Assembly (NCBI GenBank): GCA_030616165.1
Contig: JAUWXV010000069.1
Span: 1-14,985 of the forward strand
Reading direction: 5' to 3'
Length of the DNA stretch: 14,985 bases
Origin: a bacterium
GTDB lineage: Bacteria > SM23-31 > JAUVVT01
In this document: positions 1,261 through 14,985 of the stretch, in pieces
Numbering within the stretch: the stretch's first letter is position 1
Layout of the letters: every line of letters starts with the position of its first letter
Position numbers and translations under genes: made by a program
Notes under the pieces: generated by a model
Databases searched by the model: none
What the model saw: only the letters and a program-made list of their open reading frames with translations
Told to the model about the DNA's origin: nothing

Positions 1261-2523
1261 TTAAAAAAAATCTTTCTCCATTATTGGATATCTTATTTTT
1301 GATGGAAACCAATAAGAAATATTATTGTTTTTCAAATATCTTTCTTTTTCATATTTTGTCTCTAGAAATTTTGTTTTTCTCATTATTCTATCTTTAAATA
1401 TTTTATGTTCAAAATCTTTAGAATAAAATGGAAAACCATGTCTAACACATATATTTTGCTCTCTAATGTTTTTTCTATATTGTTTAACAAGAGCATCAGT
1501 CCATTTTTTATGAATGTAATAATCATCTGATGTTTGACCAATTATTCGAGGATCATAATTATCAAATAGATGGTCTAGGGATCTAAATCTACAATCAGCA
1601 ATTTGCACTTTCCATTTCCAGCATTTTATTCTCTTTTCTTCCATTTCGTCAAATGGTATATTACAATTATAGAGTACAAAAATATAAATTTCTTTTGATG
1701 AATAGCCTGCCTTTTTAAGAATATCAATCTGATTTTTAATTTTTGGATATTTATCATATATCCCATCCCAAGCAATGCGAGGATATCTAAAACCAGCTTT
1801 TTTTAACATAATTGCTAAATGTGGTTTTCTCATAAGAATTCTACCATCGAAACCTGATTGACTTTCACACCAAAATATTTTTCGATCTTTTTTCAGATTA
1901 ATAAGCTCTTCTATAACGTTTTCAATGTAAGGATTCATAAGGAAATTATTATCATAAAAAACTAATTTCTTATATGTAATTTTATCTTTGATACTCTTTT
2001 CGTATAAAAATTCAGGTTCAATTTTCCAAGTTCCACAAAATGAACATTTTCGTTTACAGCCTCTGGAAGTATGGATTATTTGATAATCTATTGGATGAGG
2101 ATTTGAATTTTTTAATAAATCATATGCAGGTTTAAGATTCTCCGCTTCTGGAATTACACCTTGATAAACTTCATCACATCCAGTAAATTGTTTGACTTTC
2201 TTTTTTGGTAATAAAGAAGCGAAAATACCCCCAACTATTATTTTTGCTTTTGGAAATATGTTTTTATAGTACTTAACTGTATCTCTTACATGTTCTGCCC
2301 AATAAGTAAATAAAGATGTTATCCAAACTTCGTTTGGATTAAATCTTTTTATATTTCGTAATTCCCTCGGATTATTTGGCAATCCCCTAATAAGTTTTAT
2401 TTTCTCTCCTTTTTCTCTTAAATAAGAAGCTATTTTTAGTAGCCCGATTGGAAGAAAATTTTTATGGTTTTTACTTTTTTGAGGAATTGGAAAATCAGGT
2501 TCAATTAATAGGATGTTTTTCAT
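1261..2523 (-). CDS. B12-binding-type radical SAM protein, last gene of the operon
   Basis: This 420-aa protein has a cobalamin-binding-like N-terminal half (about 1-135: LPIGLLKIASYLREKG near 24-39, KIIVGGIFASLLP near 94-106). The radical SAM core follows, with C156, C160 and C163 in RGCKRKCSFC holding the [4Fe-4S] cluster that cleaves S-adenosylmethionine. The acidic and aromatic C-terminal region (about 300-420) is not recognised. The architecture is that of class B radical SAM enzymes, which do methylations, ring rearrangements or sulfur insertions; the substrate here is unknown. ATG 2521-2523 follows the previous stop by five bases and has no clear ribosome binding site, suggesting translational coupling. 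It is too long, and has an N-terminal domain, to be a viperin. Whether it belongs functionally to the defence-like operon or is a passenger is open. Confidence 0.85.
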   Translation of the reverse strand: MKNILLIEPDFPIPQKSKNHKNFLPIGLLKIASYLREKGEKIKLIRGLPNNPRELRNIKRFNPNEVWITSLFTYWAEHVRDTVKYYKNIFPKAKIIVGGIFASLLPKKKVKQFTGCDEVYQGVIPEAENLKPAYDLLKNSNPHPIDYQIIHTSRGCKRKCSFCGTWKIEPEFLYEKSIKDKITYKKLVFYDNNFLMNPYIENVIEELINLKKDRKIFWCESQSGFDGRILMRKPHLAIMLKKAGFRYPRIAWDGIYDKYPKIKNQIDILKKAGYSSKEIYIFVLYNCNIPFDEMEEKRIKCWKWKVQIADCRFRSLDHLFDNYDPRIIGQTSDDYYIHKKWTDALVKQYRKNIREQNICVRHGFPFYSKDFEHKIFKDRIMRKTKFLETKYEKERYLKNNNISYWFPSKIRYPIMEKDFF

Positions 2524-2528
2524 TATTT

Positions 2529-2954
2529 TTACTTAAAACTTATTTTATTATATATTTCATGTAATTCTTTTTCTAATTGCTTATCAAATGAACCAAGCGG
2601 AGCCGATTCTATTTTATCAAATAGTAATCTAATTCCTGCATGAGCATATTCCTCTGCTATTTTGAATACTTCAGATTTATCAGTTAAAATATCTACCGAA
2701 TTAGTTTTATTTATTGCTATACTGTTTAGTAAAGCTTCATCTTCAGGTTGTAAATTTTTTATTAGAACAAATCCATCTTTATTTTTTAATGGTTGGTCAA
2801 TATTATTTTTGAATCCAATTGCCATTGAAAAAAGAAATTGTTCTTTTCTTGTTCTATTTCCACCTTTGAATCTGAGAATTTCTTCATGGTCAAGTTTATC
2901 ATATAGTATTCTATCTTTTTTATCTATATATATTCTATCTGGTATTTCTAACAT
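2529..2954 (-). CDS. Protein resembling dnd system-associated protein 4
   Basis: This 141-aa soluble protein starts DRIYIDKKD. It has a conserved-looking TRKEQFLFSMAIGFKNN segment (residues 35-51), an acidic PEDEALLNSIAI segment (70-81) and an IAEEYAHAGIRLL segment (99-111). From memory this pattern matches the small family named dnd system-associated protein 4, found beside DNA phosphorothioation-type genes; a profile search is needed to confirm. Its biochemical role is unknown. AGAGGT at 2963-2968 lies eight bases before the ATG, and the gene starts one base after the ATPase stop, so the two are surely co-transcribed. The protein has no signal peptide or membrane segment and probably works as a partner of the ATPase. 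Confidence 0.75.
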   Translation of the reverse strand: MLEIPDRIYIDKKDRILYDKLDHEEILRFKGGNRTRKEQFLFSMAIGFKNNIDQPLKNKDGFVLIKNLQPEDEALLNSIAINKTNSVDILTDKSEVFKIAEEYAHAGIRLLFDKIESAPLGSFDKQLEKELHEIYNKISFK

Positions 2955-2955
2955 T

Positions 2956-4923
2956 TTATATTACCTCTAATTTTACTTCATTTTCATCAGATGATAATTT
3001 AAAAAGATATTTGCTATTTCCTCTTATATCTAAAGATTTACGTATTTCTTTGGAATATTCTGCTGGAGTGAATAATAAGATTATTTGTTTATTGTTACTA
3101 ACTTCAGAAAAAATATTTCCTAAATTTTCTCTACTTTCATCAGAAACTCTTGCAACAGGAGTATCTATTAAAATAGGTGCATCAAAACCAGAAATTTTAT
3201 GAAGTGCTATTGTAAAAGATAAAGCTAAAAGTTCTCTTTCAGCTGCGCTTATTGAACCTAAACAGGAATATCCCATTGAATGAATTAGATCAATATCGTA
3301 ATCATCAGAAATGTTAATATCGTGAAAAGTCTCTTTTTTCCATATAAGTTGGAAAAATAGCTTCTTTGTCTCTGATTCTATTTTTTCTTTGGTTTTTTTC
3401 ATTATGAATTCTTTTGTTTTTCTAACAACATACAGTGATCTCTCACAAAAACTAATTTTTTTTATCAACTCTTTTGATCTTTTTTCTCTAGTAATTTCAT
3501 CAGTGAATCTCTTATGTAGAGCATCAATATCCTTCTGCAGATTCTTTTTCTTCTCTTCTAATACTCCTAAACTTCGATGATTTTTTCCAGATTGTTCTTC
3601 AAAACTTTTCTTTTGATTATACAACTCTTTTATTTTTTCAGGTGCGTAACCAATTTGATTTTTCTCTATTAGACCTTTCCTCTTTTCCATTTTTTCTAAC
3701 TCTTTTTCATAGTATGTAATATCGTCATTGAGAGTTTTCATTTTTTCTTTAAATTGCTTAATTTTATCCCTGTAAATAAGTAGTGGGTTTTCCATATTAG
3801 TGAGCTGAAGAGAAATATCTGACGATAATTTAATCTCTTGTAACAATTCTTTTACTCGACTTTCTGATTTAGTGTTCAAAGGGGTTCCACAGATATTACA
3901 AACTTTGTCTTTCAGAATATTTTCTAATAAAATAGGATGAGCTATAGGAGGGATCTCTTTATTTTTCTTTTTTTTCCTAATTATTTCTATAGATTTTTCA
4001 ATGACTGGCCAAAGCCTTAAAATTATTGCAAATTCAAATAGTAAGTTCTGCTTATCTTTAATCTTTCTCTTTCTTAGTTCTTTGTTGTGGTTTATGCTTG
4101 TTTTTAATTTTAATATTTCTTTATTACCTTCTTCTAAATCTGGAGTTCCCTTTAATTTACTATCAATCTTTCTTAATCCTTCATTTGCTGTTTTAATTTG
4201 AATTCTGCAATTTTCTATTTGTTTATCAACATTTTCAAGTTGTTCATTAGCACTCTCTAACTTATATCTAGTTTCTTCTATTTCAGGATTTAACTTCCCT
4301 GCTTCTCTTCTAAACTCCTTTAAAATATCTTCTAACCTTGGTTCTATTTTATTCTCTATTAATTCAATCTGAGATATCACAATAATTGCATGTCGTATAT
4401 TCTGTGCAGTGGCTTCTCTGAAATAATTGTCTAGTCTTTCACCATCAAAAAAGAAGAATTCCCTTATCCCCCTTGGAACAATGCGCTCTACATAAGAAAT
4501 AGCATCATCCGCATTTAACAATTCTGTATTACCTTTGTCATCAGTAACTTTAGCTTCAAATTCAGTAAGTTGGTGCGAAGGCTCTTTTTCACTTTTGTGA
4601 ATTGTATAAACAGCTCTTCTAGAAAATATAATATATTTTTTATTTTCCGCGCTAAATTGGACTTCAATCATTAGTTCTATATCATCTCCATCTTCTGCTT
4701 TTTTAATAGAGTTAAGATTTAAAATGGGCAATTGTTTTGAAGTTTTAGATAAATGTGGTTCTTCATTATAAAGGCACCAATTAATAGCATTTAAGAGATT
4801 CGTTTTGCCAGTACCATTTCTACCTATAGCAAAATGTAAATCATTATCGTACTTTCTATTGAATGTAATTTCTAATTCTTTAAATTGACGATAATTTTGT
4901 AATTTTATATTTTCAATTCTCAT
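2956..4923 (-). CDS. DndD-like SMC/Rad50-type ATPase with zinc hook
   Basis: This is a 655-aa protein when started at ATG 4921-4923 (MRIENIKLQNYRQF), which has GGAG eight bases upstream; GTG 4932 and ATG 4929 are alternatives. It has an N-terminal ATPase half with Walker A GRNGTGKT (34-41) and the diagnostic FFFFDGERLD (156-165) seen in DndD-like proteins. A charged coiled coil follows, interrupted by a CNIC zinc-hook motif (342-345), then a second coiled coil. The C-terminal half carries a signature-like SAAERELLALS (559-569) and Walker B ILIDTP (584-589). Such ATPases bind DNA ends or load partner enzymes. DndD proper helps DndC/DndE insert sulfur, but neither partner is present here. The start overlaps the upstream 65-aa gene by 11 bases. 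Confidence 0.85.
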   Translation of the reverse strand: MRIENIKLQNYRQFKELEITFNRKYDNDLHFAIGRNGTGKTNLLNAINWCLYNEEPHLSKTSKQLPILNLNSIKKAEDGDDIELMIEVQFSAENKKYIIFSRRAVYTIHKSEKEPSHQLTEFEAKVTDDKGNTELLNADDAISYVERIVPRGIREFFFFDGERLDNYFREATAQNIRHAIIVISQIELIENKIEPRLEDILKEFRREAGKLNPEIEETRYKLESANEQLENVDKQIENCRIQIKTANEGLRKIDSKLKGTPDLEEGNKEILKLKTSINHNKELRKRKIKDKQNLLFEFAIILRLWPVIEKSIEIIRKKKKNKEIPPIAHPILLENILKDKVCNICGTPLNTKSESRVKELLQEIKLSSDISLQLTNMENPLLIYRDKIKQFKEKMKTLNDDITYYEKELEKMEKRKGLIEKNQIGYAPEKIKELYNQKKSFEEQSGKNHRSLGVLEEKKKNLQKDIDALHKRFTDEITREKRSKELIKKISFCERSLYVVRKTKEFIMKKTKEKIESETKKLFFQLIWKKETFHDINISDDYDIDLIHSMGYSCLGSISAAERELLALSFTIALHKISGFDAPILIDTPVARVSDESRENLGNIFSEVSNNKQIILLFTPAEYSKEIRKSLDIRGNSKYLFKLSSDENEVKLEVI

Positions 4924-5110
4924 CGTCATCACTCCATTTCTCTAAATATTCTTTTATTTTTTGTTTATAAGTTTCCTTCCAATGCCAATGACCTGAATAT
5001 TCAGCTTCCTTATAAATGATGTCAATTAAAAAATTTTCTATCTTCTTATCATTTTTACAGATTTCTTTTATACATTTTAATATTTGCTCATTTATTCCTC
5101 CTTTACTCAT
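4913..5110 (-). CDS. Small acidic operon protein with GHWHWKETY motif, unknown function
   Basis: This 65-aa protein (MSKGGINEQ... ending WSDDDEN) consists of predicted helices with the aromatic motif SGHWHWKETYKQKI at 38-51 and an acidic tail. I place the start at ATG 5108-5110 because GGAGGG at 5116-5121 sits five bases upstream; an in-frame longer start at 5143 would lie inside the helicase gene without better support. The gene overlaps the helicase stop (ATGAGTAA, 8 bases) and the ATPase start (11 bases), the arrangement expected of subunits made in fixed ratio. I do not recognise a named family. The conserved-looking aromatic and His residues suggest a binding or adaptor role, which is inference. 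Confidence 0.8.
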   Translation of the reverse strand: MSKGGINEQILKCIKEICKNDKKIENFLIDIIYKEAEYSGHWHWKETYKQKIKEYLEKWSDDDEN

Positions 5111-7232
5111 TTTTTCCCTCCAAGTATTTATTTTTAATTTCAAAAATTAATTTTAAAGCTTCAGCACCATTGTTGGCTATTTTGGCGATTTCCATGTATC
5201 TTTCTACTTCTCTATTGAATATTCTCCATTCTATATTTATGAATTCAGGTGGTAATTTATTGAATGATGGAACTATAATAATATCATAAATAATTGCTTC
5301 CTTTTTATCTTTATATATTCTAATAACCCGTCCAATGCGCTGTATATATTCTCTGGGGTTACCACTGCTTGCCATTAGTATTGTATTCCTTGCTGGGGGA
5401 ATATCTACTCCTTCATCTAAACATTTCATTGCAACTAAAATTTGGTACTTTCTTTCTGCAAATTTTTGCAAAATAAAATCTCTTTGTGAAAGACCATTAT
5501 ACTTTTTGTGTGGTTTTATACCTTCTTTCATAGTAAAACGATGAGCAATTAGTCTCCGTTTATTAATGATATACATTATTTCATCGATTTGCTGATGGCT
5601 ACAATAAATTAATGTAAAATTAATAGGTGATTCCATTTCATTCAATATTTCTTCTAATATTTCATATTTTTTCGCGGCATTCTTTATAATATCTGCTCTT
5701 TTAAAAAGCAAATTTTCCAAGAATTTGTCTTTTTCTTCATCATTTCTTATGTTATTAAATTTCACAGCAATTGCTCTTGTTTTATTAACATATTCTTCTA
5801 ATTCTTCAGAAGTTAAAGACACAAATTTTGGCAAATAACGATAAGGAGTAAGGTAGCTTTCACCAGTATCAGGATTTTCTGCATTAAGTGCTTTTTCTAA
5901 TCCAAACTCATAGACAGTATTCCCAAAATAATTATAAATCTTATGAGTTCCAACATCATCAAACCATCGTTTTGGAGTAGCACTTAGCCCTAATCTAAGA
6001 TTATAATCATCTATAAGTCCCATTTTTCTTTTCTCTGCACCCAATCCGTGAACTTCGTCAGCAATTAAAAAAATGTCAGAATTACTTTTATTGTTTTGGA
6101 TGATTTTTTTAAAATCTTTTGAGAAAAACGTATCATGGGTTGTTAATATCAAAATTTTATTTTTATATCCCATAGAATTGTCTATCAATGAATCTGTCAA
6201 ATTGTTTTTCCAATAAGGATTAGAACTATCAGCTATAATTAAGCTTTCATAATTAATACCAAATTTATTAATCTCTCTTTTCCATTGTTGCACTAAATGA
6301 CTCTTTGGACAAGTAATAATGACTAAGAACTTTTGAGTAAATTTATTTATTTCATTTATACATCCTAAAGCTGCATAAGTCTTTCCTGTGCCTGTAGCCA
6401 TTTCAAAGAATACTTTCATACCATTTTTTAGCCAAAATTTAATAGCATCTTTTTGGTGTTGCCAAAGTTTTAATTCTTTTCTTCTTTTAATTTTATTATA
6501 CAATTTTTGTATGTTAATTTCTCCAATATCTAATGGTGCAATTTCAATAAATTTCCTTTCAACTGCTTTTGGAATTTCGATAACTTTTACTCGTAAGGAT
6601 TGATTATTCCAAAATCTATTAAATTTTGAAGTATCTGCAAGTACATAATCTTCCTCTGAGTTTTCCCAACTTCGAAATACTTTAAATTCCTCTATATTAC
6701 CTAACCATCCTGCTGCGGTTTCGTTTACTGAACCACTAAAAGTGAGGATATTGTTATTTTCATCTCTTAGTATTCCCACTTTTTGATGAAACAATCCTGA
6801 TTTATCTATATCATCAATACTTAGAATTTTATCTTCAATGCTAAATGCTATCGCAACCTTAATTTCTAATTTCTTATTTGCAATCATCCATCCTAAGGCA
6901 TATACATGGTCTCTAATAATTTCATTTTCAAATTTTTCCAATTCATCTAGCATATTTTTTTCAATATATTTTTCAGGTTCTTCATTTGAATTAATTATGA
7001 TTTCAATATCTCTTTTTGACAATTTAGGCGAAACAATTAATTTCATTGTTCCATTATTTTTAATAAGACCATAAATTCCTTTTGCAGCTACTGCCAAACT
7101 TGTTGATGAAAAAAACCCAGCTAATCTTTTATATTCAATAGAAGTTTCTAATGTAGGAATATAGAAGTCGTTTAAAATGTCATCTTCATCAGAAGAATAA
7201 GATTTTTTTAAAGAAATATCTTTAAAGCTCAT
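5103..7232 (-). CDS. PLD-like nuclease / SF2 helicase fusion, first gene of the operon
   Basis: This 709-aa protein has an N-terminal phospholipase-D-like domain (about 20-215) with one HKD-type motif: H149-x-K151 (FHQKVGIL) followed by SGSVNET (166-172). The superfamily 2 helicase core follows: Walker A MATGTGKT (278-285), DEVH box (392-395), SAT (417-419), LDEGVDIPPA (605-614) and QRIGRVIR (631-638). One HKD motif implies that two chains pair to make a nuclease site. The family reads as DNA translocation plus phosphodiester cleavage, typical of restriction or defence effectors. ATG 7230-7232 has no ribosome binding site, but a TATAAT lies only nine bases upstream, so a leaderless message is possible. 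The stop overlaps the next gene by 8 bases. Confidence 0.88.
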   Translation of the reverse strand: MSFKDISLKKSYSSDEDDILNDFYIPTLETSIEYKRLAGFFSSTSLAVAAKGIYGLIKNNGTMKLIVSPKLSKRDIEIIINSNEEPEKYIEKNMLDELEKFENEIIRDHVYALGWMIANKKLEIKVAIAFSIEDKILSIDDIDKSGLFHQKVGILRDENNNILTFSGSVNETAAGWLGNIEEFKVFRSWENSEEDYVLADTSKFNRFWNNQSLRVKVIEIPKAVERKFIEIAPLDIGEINIQKLYNKIKRRKELKLWQHQKDAIKFWLKNGMKVFFEMATGTGKTYAALGCINEINKFTQKFLVIITCPKSHLVQQWKREINKFGINYESLIIADSSNPYWKNNLTDSLIDNSMGYKNKILILTTHDTFFSKDFKKIIQNNKSNSDIFLIADEVHGLGAEKRKMGLIDDYNLRLGLSATPKRWFDDVGTHKIYNYFGNTVYEFGLEKALNAENPDTGESYLTPYRYLPKFVSLTSEELEEYVNKTRAIAVKFNNIRNDEEKDKFLENLLFKRADIIKNAAKKYEILEEILNEMESPINFTLIYCSHQQIDEIMYIINKRRLIAHRFTMKEGIKPHKKYNGLSQRDFILQKFAERKYQILVAMKCLDEGVDIPPARNTILMASSGNPREYIQRIGRVIRIYKDKKEAIIYDIIIVPSFNKLPPEFINIEWRIFNREVERYMEIAKIANNGAEALKLIFEIKNKYLEGKNE

Positions 7233-13189: not shown

Positions 13190-13536
13190 TGTTTTTTAGT
13201 TTCCTCATCTATTATTTCTTTAATTTTTGAGATAACATTTGGAAGCTCATTTTTAACTTGCCACACAATATCGTAATTAATCCCGAAGTAATGATGTATG
13301 ACCTTATCTCTTAATCCTGCAAATTTTCTCCATGGGATTTGTGGATATTTCTTCTTTACATAAGCTGATATATTTTTTGCTGCTTCTCAAATAATTTCAA
13401 GATTACGAATAACAGCATCTTGAGTTTTTCTGTCTTGGGAAAAGTCATCAAAGCTTAATCCTTGAGTGTATAGAGTTATTAACTCTATAGCCTCAACAAT
13501 ATCACCAAGATAATCAACATTTCTTCTTTTAGGCAT
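13186..13536 (-). pseudogene. hepT: hepT toxin gene (HEPN/DUF86 RNase) with one nonsense codon
   Basis: From ATG 13534-13536 the frame reads MPKRRNVDYLGDIVEAIELI and continues to a stop at 13186-13188, 116 codon positions, the usual HepT length. Codon 50 is TGA (13387-13389) in NLEII-stop-EAAKNIS, where the family has Gly (IIGEAA); one G-to-T change explains it. The HEPN catalytic RDKVIHHY (Rx4HxY, about 76-83) lies after the stop, so a truncated product would lack it. The ATG overlaps the end of mntA by 8 bases, the usual arrangement in this toxin-antitoxin family. Loss of the RNase toxin is harmless to the cell. A sequencing or assembly error at this base is the alternative. Confidence 0.85.
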
Positions 13537-13837
13537 ATATCAAACTCTTTTCAATATTTTCAGCGATATGTTTATACCTTGGATTTTTAAAACAATCAAA
13601 AGTAGCAATATCAACTTTTTTACCCAATAAATCCTCAAGATGGTATGCAAGTTCCATAAAATCGAGACCTAATGGCTTTTTAAGTTCAACTAAAATATCT
13701 ACATCGCTTCTTTTTCTCTGCAAGCCTTTGGTGAAAGAGCCAAAAATGGCAATTTTTTCCACCCCGTATTTTTCACTTAAATAAGGATGTTCTTTCTTAA
13801 GAATCTCAATGATTTTTTTCTTTGTAAGAATCTTCAT
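13529..13837 (-). CDS. mntA: MntA-type nucleotidyltransferase antitoxin
   Basis: This 102-aa minimal nucleotidyltransferase has the nucleotide-binding GSF (33-35) followed by SDVDILVEL with metal ligands D45 and D47, and a likely third Asp in KKVDIAT (D76). Known MntA proteins neutralise the partner HepT RNase by attaching AMP to the Tyr of its Rx4HxY motif. Here that partner is interrupted by a stop codon, so MntA may now be an orphan. It starts nine bases after the remnant methyltransferase gene and overlaps hepT by 8 bases, so all were co-transcribed. The protein looks complete and has no missing motif. Confidence 0.88.
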   Translation of the reverse strand: MKILTKKKIIEILKKEHPYLSEKYGVEKIAIFGSFTKGLQRKRSDVDILVELKKPLGLDFMELAYHLEDLLGKKVDIATFDCFKNPRYKHIAENIEKSLIYA

Positions 13838-14149: not shown

Positions 14150-14240
14150 AATGTCAAAAGAATTTTAATTTTTTTTTAAAAAGTGAACAAGTTGAATAAA
14201 ATTAACCGCAGACCCACAGGGCAGGGGTGCGGAGGGCAAG
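14150..14240. repeat. Composite repeat, copy 2 (AATGTCAAAAGAATT + CCGCAG module)
   Basis: AATGTCAAAAGAATT, a T-run and A-run, then CCGCAG ACCCACAGGGCAG GGGTGCGGAG GGCAAG. The module order is the same as at 7523-7628, with a shorter linker. Confidence 0.65.
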
Positions 14241-14261
14241 ATCCTGAAACAAGTTCAGGAT
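14241..14261. repeat. ATCCTGAA...TTCAGGAT hairpin repeat
   Basis: ATCCTGAA (14241-14248) and TTCAGGAT (14254-14261) form a perfect 8-bp stem around ACAAG, followed by GACAA. This phrase is a widespread interspersed intergenic hairpin in many bacterial genomes. Confidence 0.7.
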
Positions 14262-14295
14262 GACAATTTTGTTTTTAATGATGATTATTTTATTT

Positions 14296-14397
14296 TAACC
14301 GCAGACTCGATAGGCAAGGGGCATAGACCCGAAGGGCAGGGAGGAAATATTTTGTATGGATTCCCCCGAGTACTCGGGGGAATGACAAGGGGGATTT
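14296..14397. repeat. Composite repeat: CCGCAG + two cassettes + TTTTGTATGGATTCCC palindrome
   Basis: It carries ACTCGATAGGCAAG (14305-14318) and ACCCGAAGGGCAG (14327-14339), then TATTTTGTATGG, the 24-bp palindrome at 14360-14383 and GACAAGGGGGAT. The same order recurs at 14749-14876. Confidence 0.7.
14360..14383. repeat. Perfect 24-bp palindrome (ATTCCCCCGAG / CTCGGGGGAAT)
   Basis: Each 12-base half is the exact reverse complement of the other with no loop. It belongs to the GGATTCCC...GGGAATGAC interspersed hairpin type. A frame read through these repeats gives the spurious SFPR-type peptide, so no gene is called here. Confidence 0.75.
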
Positions 14398-14464
14398 AGG
14401 ATTTACGAATGACGATTTAAGAATGAAGAATGGAACCACAGAGAACACAGACCCAAAGGGCAAG
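14397..14464. repeat. TTTACGAATGACGATTTA phrase followed by CACAG module and cassette
   Basis: The first part repeats text seen at 1087-1119. ACCACAGAGAACACAG is followed by the cassette ACCCAAAGGGCAAG (14451-14464). Confidence 0.6.
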
Positions 14465-14524
14465 GGGGGATTATATGGATGAAAACCGTTGAACTGGTTT
14501 GAATTTTCAAGGTTATGGTTTTTG

Positions 14525-14567
14525 CCCCTCACTGAAGTGAGGGGTTAATAAGCCTGAGGCTTATTAA
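14525..14567. repeat. Two back-to-back perfect hairpins
   Basis: CCCCTCACT (14525-14533) pairs with AGTGAGGGG (14536-14544) around GA. Directly after it TTAATAAGCC (14545-14554) pairs with GGCTTATTAA (14558-14567) around TGA. Both stems are perfect (9 and 10 bp) with no base between them. They are not next to a gene end, so a tandem interspersed repeat is likelier than a terminator. Confidence 0.65.
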
Positions 14568-14591
14568 TGAAATTTAGAGAATTAACCGCTG

Positions 14592-14605
14592 ATTTGAAGG
14601 GCAAG
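14592..14605. repeat. GGGCAAG cassette inside a CCGCTGATTTTCACGGATTA repeat
   Basis: ATTTGAAGGGCAAG sits between CCGCTG and TTTTCACGGATTACACAG. Removing it restores a familiar ATTTTCACGGATTA repeat phrase, as expected of an insertion. Confidence 0.5.
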
Positions 14606-14708
14606 TTTTCACGGATTACACAGTCATACAAAGATAATTAAATTGTGACAGACAAGAATGTCTATCCCACCATTTTTATTAAAAGGATGGGAAAAAAGGA
14701 AATGAGGA

Positions 14709-14780
14709 AAATGGAAAATGGAAAATGGAAAATTAAAAATGGAAAATGAAACCACAGAGAGCACAGATCCAAAGGGCAAG
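14709..14780. repeat. 72-bp direct repeat, copy 1
   Basis: It consists of GGAAAAT units, AATTAAAAATGGAAAATG, then ACCACAGAGAGCACAG and a cassette ATCCAAAGGGCAAG. It matches 14891-14962 with two differences, at a period of 182 bases. Confidence 0.85.
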
Positions 14781-14822
14781 GATACAGACCCGAAGGGCAA
14801 AGAAGGGATATATTTTGTATGG

Positions 14823-14842
14823 ATTCCCGCGTGCGCGGGAAT
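14823..14842. repeat. ATTCCCGCG / CGCGGGAAT hairpin
   Basis: Nine-base arms (14823-14831 and 14834-14842) flank TG. It is preceded by TATTTTGTATGG and followed by GACAA, like the palindrome at 14360-14383. Confidence 0.75.
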
Positions 14843-14890
14843 GACAAAAGAGGGGGTGGGAATGACAAGGGGGATAAGGAATGGATGATT

Positions 14891-14962
14891 AAATGGAAAA
14901 TGGAAAATGGAAAATTAAAAATGGAAAATGAAACCACAGAGAGCACAGACCCGAAGGGCAAG
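14891..14962. repeat. 72-bp direct repeat, copy 2
   Basis: Same as 14709-14780 except for two bases in the cassette (ACCCGAAGGGCAAG here). The text after it (CCCGAAGGGAAAAGAGGAAAATG) suggests that a further unit begins at the window edge. Confidence 0.85.
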
Positions 14963-14985
14963 CCCGAAGGGAAAAGAGGAAAATG

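What the first reader, a model, noticed from the sequence alone, without database searches (positions are those of the whole stretch)
1261..7232. Five-gene operon: Dnd-accessory-like parts without sulfur-transfer genes, plus a radical SAM enzyme
Five minus-strand genes are fused by overlaps (8 and 11 bases) or gaps of 1 and 5 bases. They encode a PLD-helicase, a 65-aa acidic protein, a DndD-like zinc-hook ATPase (FFFFDGERLD), a protein resembling dnd system-associated protein 4, and a B12-type radical SAM enzyme. DNA phosphorothioation loci normally need a cysteine desulfurase, DndC and DndE, and none is seen here. I know of no named defence system with this composition. It may be a nuclease-helicase defence module that borrowed the Dnd ATPase, or a system that makes or reads a different DNA modification.
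Basis: partly seen in the sequence, partly recalled or inferred. Interest (0 to 1): 0.78.

Follow-up and report, generated by a model that had tools for sequence, protein, structure and literature searches.

The report
PbeABCD defence operon with radical-SAM partner
Four of the five genes are a known virus-defence cassette (PbeABCD), and the fifth, a vitamin-B12-type radical enzyme, is a conserved partner that turns up where other defence systems keep their DNA-marking enzyme, so it is a strong candidate for a new kind of DNA-modifying enzyme.

Summary
In detail: five co-directional genes with the stated overlaps and gaps. Four are PbeABCD, a named system (Xiong 2019; the 'CxC ABC-ATPase/DndE' system of the Aravind group). 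PbeA and PbeC match PADLOC Pbe models at 758 and 613 bits, and PbeD folds like DndE. So 'no named system' is wrong for the core. What is new is the fifth gene. The B12-type radical SAM (rSAM) is a conserved partner: in 22 loci from archaea and bacteria found with the rSAM, plus one Pbe locus found independently, it sits beside pbe genes, mostly directly after pbeD. No complete DndC was found in the window genome or 21 other rSAM-Pbe genomes; Pbe loci sampled without the rSAM mostly have Dnd or a methyltransferase. The same rSAM family ends DISARM operons (no methyltransferase found), pairs with a ParB-DpnII-type nuclease, and lies beside DndB-like, GHKL or HerA-NurA genes and in phages. On the rSAM tree it moved between Pbe and DISARM repeatedly. 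Best reading: the rSAM writes an unknown DNA mark for self/non-self discrimination, replacing phosphorothioation or methylation. DNA substrate and chemistry are inferred, not shown. No mention was found in the papers searched.

The parts
5103..7232 (-). pbeA: N-terminal HKD/phospholipase-D-like nuclease domain (HQK...SGSVNET) fused to an SF2 helicase, 709 aa
   Evidence: PADLOC PbeA PDLC02707 758 bits, 2.2e-228; TIGR04095 dnd_restrict_1 3.8e-123, below cut-off; HxK and S-G-S-x-N-E-T invariant in the alignment with two Dnd-linked PbeA
4913..5110 (-). pbeB: small acidic protein, 65 aa
   Evidence: ORF; clusters with the small gene at the same place in L060, L101 and L111 (C16)
2956..4923 (-). 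pbeC: DndD-like ABC ATPase with coiled coil and zinc hook (ATG start; GTG at 4932 possible)
   Evidence: PADLOC PbeC PDLC02712 613 bits, 1.2e-184; DndD TIGR03185 9.2e-36
3889..3900 (-). zinc hook CNIC (CxxC) of PbeC
   Evidence: alignment A1; hook list over 34 PbeC: CxxC in the window's PbeC clade, CxC in most Dnd- and MTase-linked PbeC
2529..2954 (-). pbeD: DndE-like protein with two ribbon-helix-helix units, 141 aa
   Evidence: TIGR04062 3.1e-7; model pLDDT 88.8; best structural matches are all DndE, Z 9.6, rmsd 2.8 over 96 residues for 5wtu
1261..2523 (-). cobalamin-type radical SAM enzyme, 420 aa, conserved fifth gene and proposed DNA-modifying partner
   Evidence: B12-binding 1.5e-11 and Radical_SAM 3.1e-6; model pLDDT 94.5; full-length match to B12-type and MTTase-type rSAM enzymes, Z 14-22; next to pbe genes in 22 further loci
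2035..2058 (-). CxxxCxxC motif (C156, C160, C163) for the radical-SAM 4Fe-4S cluster
   Evidence: invariant in 73 family members

Best explanation
The cluster is a PbeABCD (CxC/CxxC ABC-ATPase-DndE) anti-virus system whose self-marking function is supplied by a cobalamin-type radical SAM enzyme instead of DndCDEA phosphorothioation or a methyltransferase. Proposed steps. (1) The rSAM, using a 4Fe-4S cluster, SAM and probably cobalamin, puts a so far unknown mark (C-methyl, methylthio or another radical-type change) on host DNA at chosen sites. (2) The PbeC ATPase and the DndE-like PbeD scan DNA for those sites; PbeB is a small regulator or adaptor. (3) Where the mark is missing, the PbeA helicase-nuclease translocates and blocks or cuts the foreign DNA. 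Shown here: the identity of PbeA, C and D, the rSAM fold and its cluster motif, the conserved linkage, absence of an intact dndC, and the swapping of the rSAM among several defence systems. From the literature: PbeABCD blocks virus replication and needs phosphorothioation in its Dnd-linked form (PMC6459918). Inferred: that the rSAM substrate is DNA, the chemistry, and the self-protection role.
For: PbeA and PbeC matches to PADLOC Pbe models; PbeD = DndE fold. A genome scan with the rSAM returned 80 loci; 22 carry pbe genes nearby, with the rSAM directly after the PbeCD genes on the same strand in most. Pbe is rare: 9 of 386 diverse genomes have a PbeA-like match, so such adjacency is not chance. 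G383, found through Pbe alone, again shows PbeA-C-D-rSAM. DndC over the family cut-off: 0 of 22 rSAM-Pbe genomes, 4 of 4 Dnd-Pbe genomes; Pbe loci on plasmids, none chosen by rSAM, have dnd genes or a methyltransferase close by in seven of nine. One genome (G390) holds two Pbe copies, one with rSAM and one followed by a truncated dndC; L083 holds one copy with a D12 methyltransferase and one with the rSAM. The rSAM family also ends DISARM operons (DrmA/B/C, DrmE) with no methyltransferase among the 23 neighbour proteins scanned, and directly follows a ParB_N-DpnII/MboI-type nuclease in 6 of 8 such loci. 61 of 79 rSAM loci have a gene of such a module within 5 kb. On the rSAM tree the Pbe label needs at least 10 changes even on strong branches, with Pbe/DISARM sister pairs L067-L069, L070-L074 and L130-L131 at 97-100 support. 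Plasmid members lie beside DGQHR (DndB-type) genes. The rSAM is basic: pI 9.6, family median 9.2.
Against: No DNA modification has been measured. 18 of 79 rSAM loci show no such partner within 5 kb, though about half of these are cut by a contig end close by. Some family members stand alone in phages or beside GHKL ATPases of unknown function. A few rSAM-Pbe loci (L083, L085, L099) also carry a methyltransferase. The structural matches include enzymes acting on small molecules and peptides, so they do not single out nucleic acid. Three of the 22 loci have the rSAM on the opposite strand.
Confidence: 0.66

Rival explanations
1. The rSAM modifies a protein or tRNA component of the defence (for example PbeB, PbeC or a tRNA) and so switches the effector on or off, rather than marking DNA.
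For: The fold is shared with enzymes acting on protein (MgmA, RimO) and tRNA (MiaB); many Pbe loci have a small PbeB-type protein beside the rSAM operon.
Against: The same rSAM family pairs with effectors that share no protein: Pbe, DISARM DrmABC, ParB-DpnII nuclease, HerA-NurA. One shared protein or tRNA substrate for all is harder to see than one shared DNA mark.
Confidence: 0.15
2. The rSAM makes an antiviral small molecule, such as a modified nucleotide like the products of viperin, and is an extra effector beside Pbe.
For: Prokaryotic viperins are radical SAM defence enzymes (review PMC12926258); viperin appears in the structure list, Z about 11.
Against: Viperin matches only the radical SAM core; B12-type and MTTase-type enzymes match over the whole length at Z 14-22. 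Phages carry the gene too, and it takes the place of modification genes.
Confidence: 0.08
3. Solitary PbeABCD without phosphorothioation; the rSAM is a metabolic neighbour carried along, with no part in defence.
For: Solitary Pbe loci are common (320 of 553, PMC6459918). The operon is AT-rich (26-28% GC against 35-38% further on), as expected of an acquired island.
Against: 22 other rSAM-Pbe loci in distant archaea and bacteria, plus one found independently, and use of the same family in other defence systems.
Confidence: 0.05
4. The system still uses phosphorothioation, with sulfur genes elsewhere or missing from the assembly, and the rSAM adds a further step (for example alkylation of the thioate).
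For: One rSAM (L109) is fused to a PAPS-reductase/PP-loop domain, the superfamily of DndC. Several genomes are incomplete assemblies.
Against: No DndC over cut-off in 22 rSAM-Pbe genomes, against 4 of 4 in Dnd-Pbe genomes; the fusion is a single case.
Confidence: 0.06

Closest known systems
DndCDEA-PbeABCD (Xiong et al. 2019, PMC6459918)
   Same: Four genes pbeA-B-C-D in the same order and families
   Different: No dndCDEA; a cobalamin-type radical SAM gene takes the modification slot; zinc hook CxxC in the window's PbeC clade
CxC ABC-ATPase/DndE-centred systems with cytosine methylases (PMC10853773)
   Same: Same ATPase-DndE core, HKD nuclease-helicase and small protein; modification not by phosphorothioation
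   Different: An rSAM instead of a methylase; in that paper 'radical SAM' is mentioned only in connection with DndC
DISARM (DrmA, DrmB, DrmC, DrmE with DrmMI or DrmMII)
   Same: The same rSAM family is the terminal gene of DISARM-like operons that show no methyltransferase
   Different: The window has no Drm genes
Cobalamin-type (class B) and MTTase-type radical SAM enzymes: AprD4, MgmA, CysS, TsrM, OxsB, TokK, MiaB, RimO
   Same: Whole-length fold, CxxxCxxC motif, B12-binding-like N-terminal domain
   Different: Identity only 7-14%; a different genetic neighbourhood; substrate unknown

Membership tests
PbeABCD | PbeA: HKD/PLD nuclease domain fused to SF2 helicase | tested here: met
   PADLOC 758 bits; motif conserved
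PbeABCD | PbeC: DndD-related ABC ATPase with zinc hook | tested here: met
   PADLOC 613 bits; hook is CxxC rather than CxC
PbeABCD | PbeD: DndE-like protein | tested here: met
   Fold match to DndE, Z 9.6
PbeABCD | PbeB small protein between A and C | tested here: met
   65-aa ORF, clusters with those of L060, L101, L111
PbeABCD | Partner dndCDEA making phosphorothioate (as in the type example) | tested here: not met
   No DndC in the window genome nor over cut-off in the other rSAM-Pbe genomes
PbeABCD | Blocks virus replication when the invader lacks the mark | not testable with these tools
   needs a phage or virus assay
Dnd phosphorothioation system | DndC sulfurtransferase | tested here: not met
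Cobalamin-type radical SAM enzymes | CxxxCxxC cluster motif in a radical SAM barrel | tested here: met
   invariant in 73 members; model
Cobalamin-type radical SAM enzymes | N-terminal B12-binding-like Rossmann domain | tested here: met
   PF02310 1.5e-11 above cut-off; fold
Cobalamin-type radical SAM enzymes | Bound cobalamin and its use in catalysis | not testable with these tools
   MiaB- and RimO-type enzymes share the domain without cobalamin (general knowledge)

The most novel reading that the evidence does not exclude
A B12-type radical SAM enzyme family is a portable DNA-modification module, the 'M' of restriction-like systems built on PbeABCD, DISARM DrmABC(E) and ParB-DpnII nucleases, and is also carried by phages. 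It would make a DNA mark not yet known.
Probability: 0.6. Interest if true: 0.92.

Novelty: new variant of a known kind. Interest (0 to 1): 0.78.

Why it matters
It offers a concrete answer to the open question of how Pbe systems without dnd genes tell self from non-self. It also points to one enzyme family, found across archaea, bacteria, plasmids and phages, that may write an undescribed DNA mark. Some carriers are named isolates or deposited strains (Methanobrevibacter curvatus DSM 11111, M. filiformis DSM 11501, Methanoculleus sediminis S3Fa, Novosphingobium aromaticivorans with pNL1), so mass spectrometry of their DNA would test it directly.

Tried and rejected
(1) A wholly unnamed system: rejected for the core, since PbeABCD is named. 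(2) dnd genes elsewhere in the genome: not found. (3) rSAM as a chance neighbour: rejected by synteny in other genomes. (4) A fixed Pbe-rSAM lineage: rejected, the rSAM tree needs many changes of context. (5) Sulfur chemistry shared by the family, suggested by the L109 PP-loop fusion: only one fusion, so kept as a lead. (6) Pbe in viral contigs: five distant hits only, not followed. (7) Literature: ten searches found no paper on this rSAM as a defence or DNA-modification gene; the 2020 ABC-ATPase classification itself was not found in the library, so an earlier mention there cannot be excluded.
Full report
Observation. The five minus-strand genes are present as described, with an 8-base and an 11-base overlap and 1-base and 5-base gaps. 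The window is one whole contig of a 3.74-Mb, 343-contig, 90%-complete genome; in the held set its phylum has six genomes. The operon is 26-28% GC, while 7.5-12 kb is 35-38%, which fits an acquired island.

The core is known. PbeA and PbeC match PADLOC models at 758 and 613 bits, far above the DndD model. The 65-aa gene is in the place of PbeB and clusters with small proteins at that place in L060, L101 and L111. The fourth protein matches dnd_assoc_4 only weakly, but its AlphaFold model (pLDDT 88.8) has DndE structures as its best matches (Z 9.6, rmsd 2.8 over 96 residues for 5wtu; the next family is a protein of the F plasmid relaxosome at 6.8). Foldseek alone gave no E-value under 0.001. This agrees with the published view that PbeD is the DndE cognate and PbeC a DndD-sister ATPase (PMC10853773). 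PbeABCD with dndCDEA blocks virus replication in haloarchaea; 320 of 553 PbeAC pairs were reported without dnd genes, and pairing with other modifications was proposed (PMC6459918).

The fifth gene is a conserved partner. A scan of about 85,000 species genomes with an alignment of the rSAM gave 494 relatives, of which the best 80 were returned. Home-made profiles found pbe genes near the rSAM in 22 of them: Candidatus Stahlbacteria, Chloroflexota, Phycisphaerae, Dojkabacteria, Methanobrevibacter, Methanosphaera, Lokiarchaeota, Nanoarchaeota and others. In most the rSAM follows pbeD on the same strand, often overlapping or within about 100 bases; in L083 and L099 it precedes pbeA; in L077, L088 and L130 it is on the other strand. 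Two of the loci (L074, L075) come from one genome. In an independent sample of 386 genomes searched with PbeA only, the six long PbeA matches include the window and G383 with rSAM, G006, G044 and G380 with DndC, and G180 with what reads as a D12-type methyltransferase (sequence reading).

The rSAM replaces dnd. No DndC was found by profile in the rSAM-Pbe loci (the one weak hit, L109, is not a Pbe locus). Genome-wide, DndC over the cut-off was absent in the window genome and 21 other rSAM-Pbe genomes and present in 4 of 4 Dnd-Pbe genomes. G390 has a weak partial hit that turned out to be a truncated dndC behind a second Pbe copy. Pbe loci on plasmids, found with PbeA, had dnd genes or methyltransferases near in seven of nine inspected, and no annotated rSAM (L191 and L196 had neither a dndC nor a methyltransferase annotated within 8 kb). 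For the PbeC tree L196 was labelled as methyltransferase-linked, which its annotation does not bear out; the tree is used only for the hook comparison and the grouping of the window's PbeC with rSAM-linked ones.

The rSAM family serves several systems. Clustering of neighbours and profile scans show the rSAM beside DISARM genes DrmA, DrmB, DrmC and DrmE-like proteins (eight loci plus one viral contig, and two with only the DrmE-like gene), with no methyltransferase family among all 19 families matched in 23 neighbours; beside a ParB_N-DpnII/MboI-type nuclease (eight loci); beside GHKL ATPases with either of two unknown proteins; beside HerA-NurA, including Marinitoga camini virus 1; in ParB-VRR-SNF2-ParB-rSAM-GHKL clusters of phage-like contigs and Rhizobium plasmids (the name VRR is a reading, no Pfam match); beside DGQHR/DndB-like genes; and in a phage contig just before a 604-aa protein that reads as a large terminase (no Pfam match). 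In all, 61 of 79 loci carry one of these modules within 5 kb. For the Pbe neighbours, 44 Pfam families were matched and only 25 listed, so a methyltransferase family with one member could be hidden; those listed come from two D12 and two N6_N4 members.

Family tree. With 73 rSAM proteins (IQ-TREE quick search, SH-aLRT support only), the Pbe label needs 13 changes, at least 10 on strong branches, and Pbe- and DISARM-linked rSAMs are sisters in L067-L069, L070-L074 and L130-L131. The rSAM thus moved between unrelated effector sets, as methyltransferases do among restriction systems.

Enzyme. The model of the window rSAM (pLDDT 94.5) matches whole-length AprD4 (Z 22.5), MgmA, MiaB, RimO, CysS, TsrM and OxsB. 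The cluster cysteines are invariant. The protein is basic. A single relative is fused to a PAPS-reductase/PP-loop domain.

Mechanism. The best reading is that the rSAM marks host DNA, PbeC-PbeD read the sites, and PbeA acts on unmarked DNA. The DNA substrate, the mark and its protective role are inferences from context. Rivals (protein or tRNA modification, an antiviral small molecule, a bystander gene, phosphorothioation with hidden sulfur genes) are less consistent with the use of the same rSAM beside unrelated effectors.

Novelty. The core is known, the rSAM partnership was not found in the papers that could be searched, and no PADLOC or NCBIfam model covers this rSAM specifically. It is therefore a new variant of a known kind, with the possibility of a new DNA modification enzyme behind it.

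Noticed in passing
L109:5126-7219: An rSAM of this family fused to a PAPS-reductase/PP-loop domain (PF01507, 1.8e-24), beside a ParB_N-DpnII-type nuclease gene; may hint at sulfur chemistry.
   Followed up: partly
L201 (genome G390): A second Pbe copy followed by a dndC cut by the contig end, in the same genome as the rSAM-Pbe locus L069.
   Followed up: partly
L064, L067, L070, L087, L121, L125, L128, L131, L149: DISARM-like DrmA/B/C (some with DrmE) operons with this rSAM and no methyltransferase detected.
   Followed up: partly
L084, L093, L102, L105, L107, L108, L109, L118: ParB_N fused to a DpnII/MboI-type nuclease domain, followed by the rSAM: a possible minimal restriction pair.
   Followed up: partly
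L085:926-3558 and L101:2436-5248: A GHKL ATPase plus an unknown protein of about 330 aa (cluster C15) directly before pbeA; elsewhere the same pair stands with the rSAM alone.
   Followed up: no
L056:1064-1363 (genome G005): A remnant about 64% identical to the window rSAM C-terminal part in a genome of the same class, apparently a decayed copy.
   Followed up: no
window 14202-14976: A patch of short direct repeats at the contig end (for example AGACCCGAAGGGCAAG and AAAATGGAAAATGG units).
   Followed up: no
window 13529-13837: A small MNT-type nucleotidyltransferase gene (NTP_transf_2, 3e-15).
   Followed up: no
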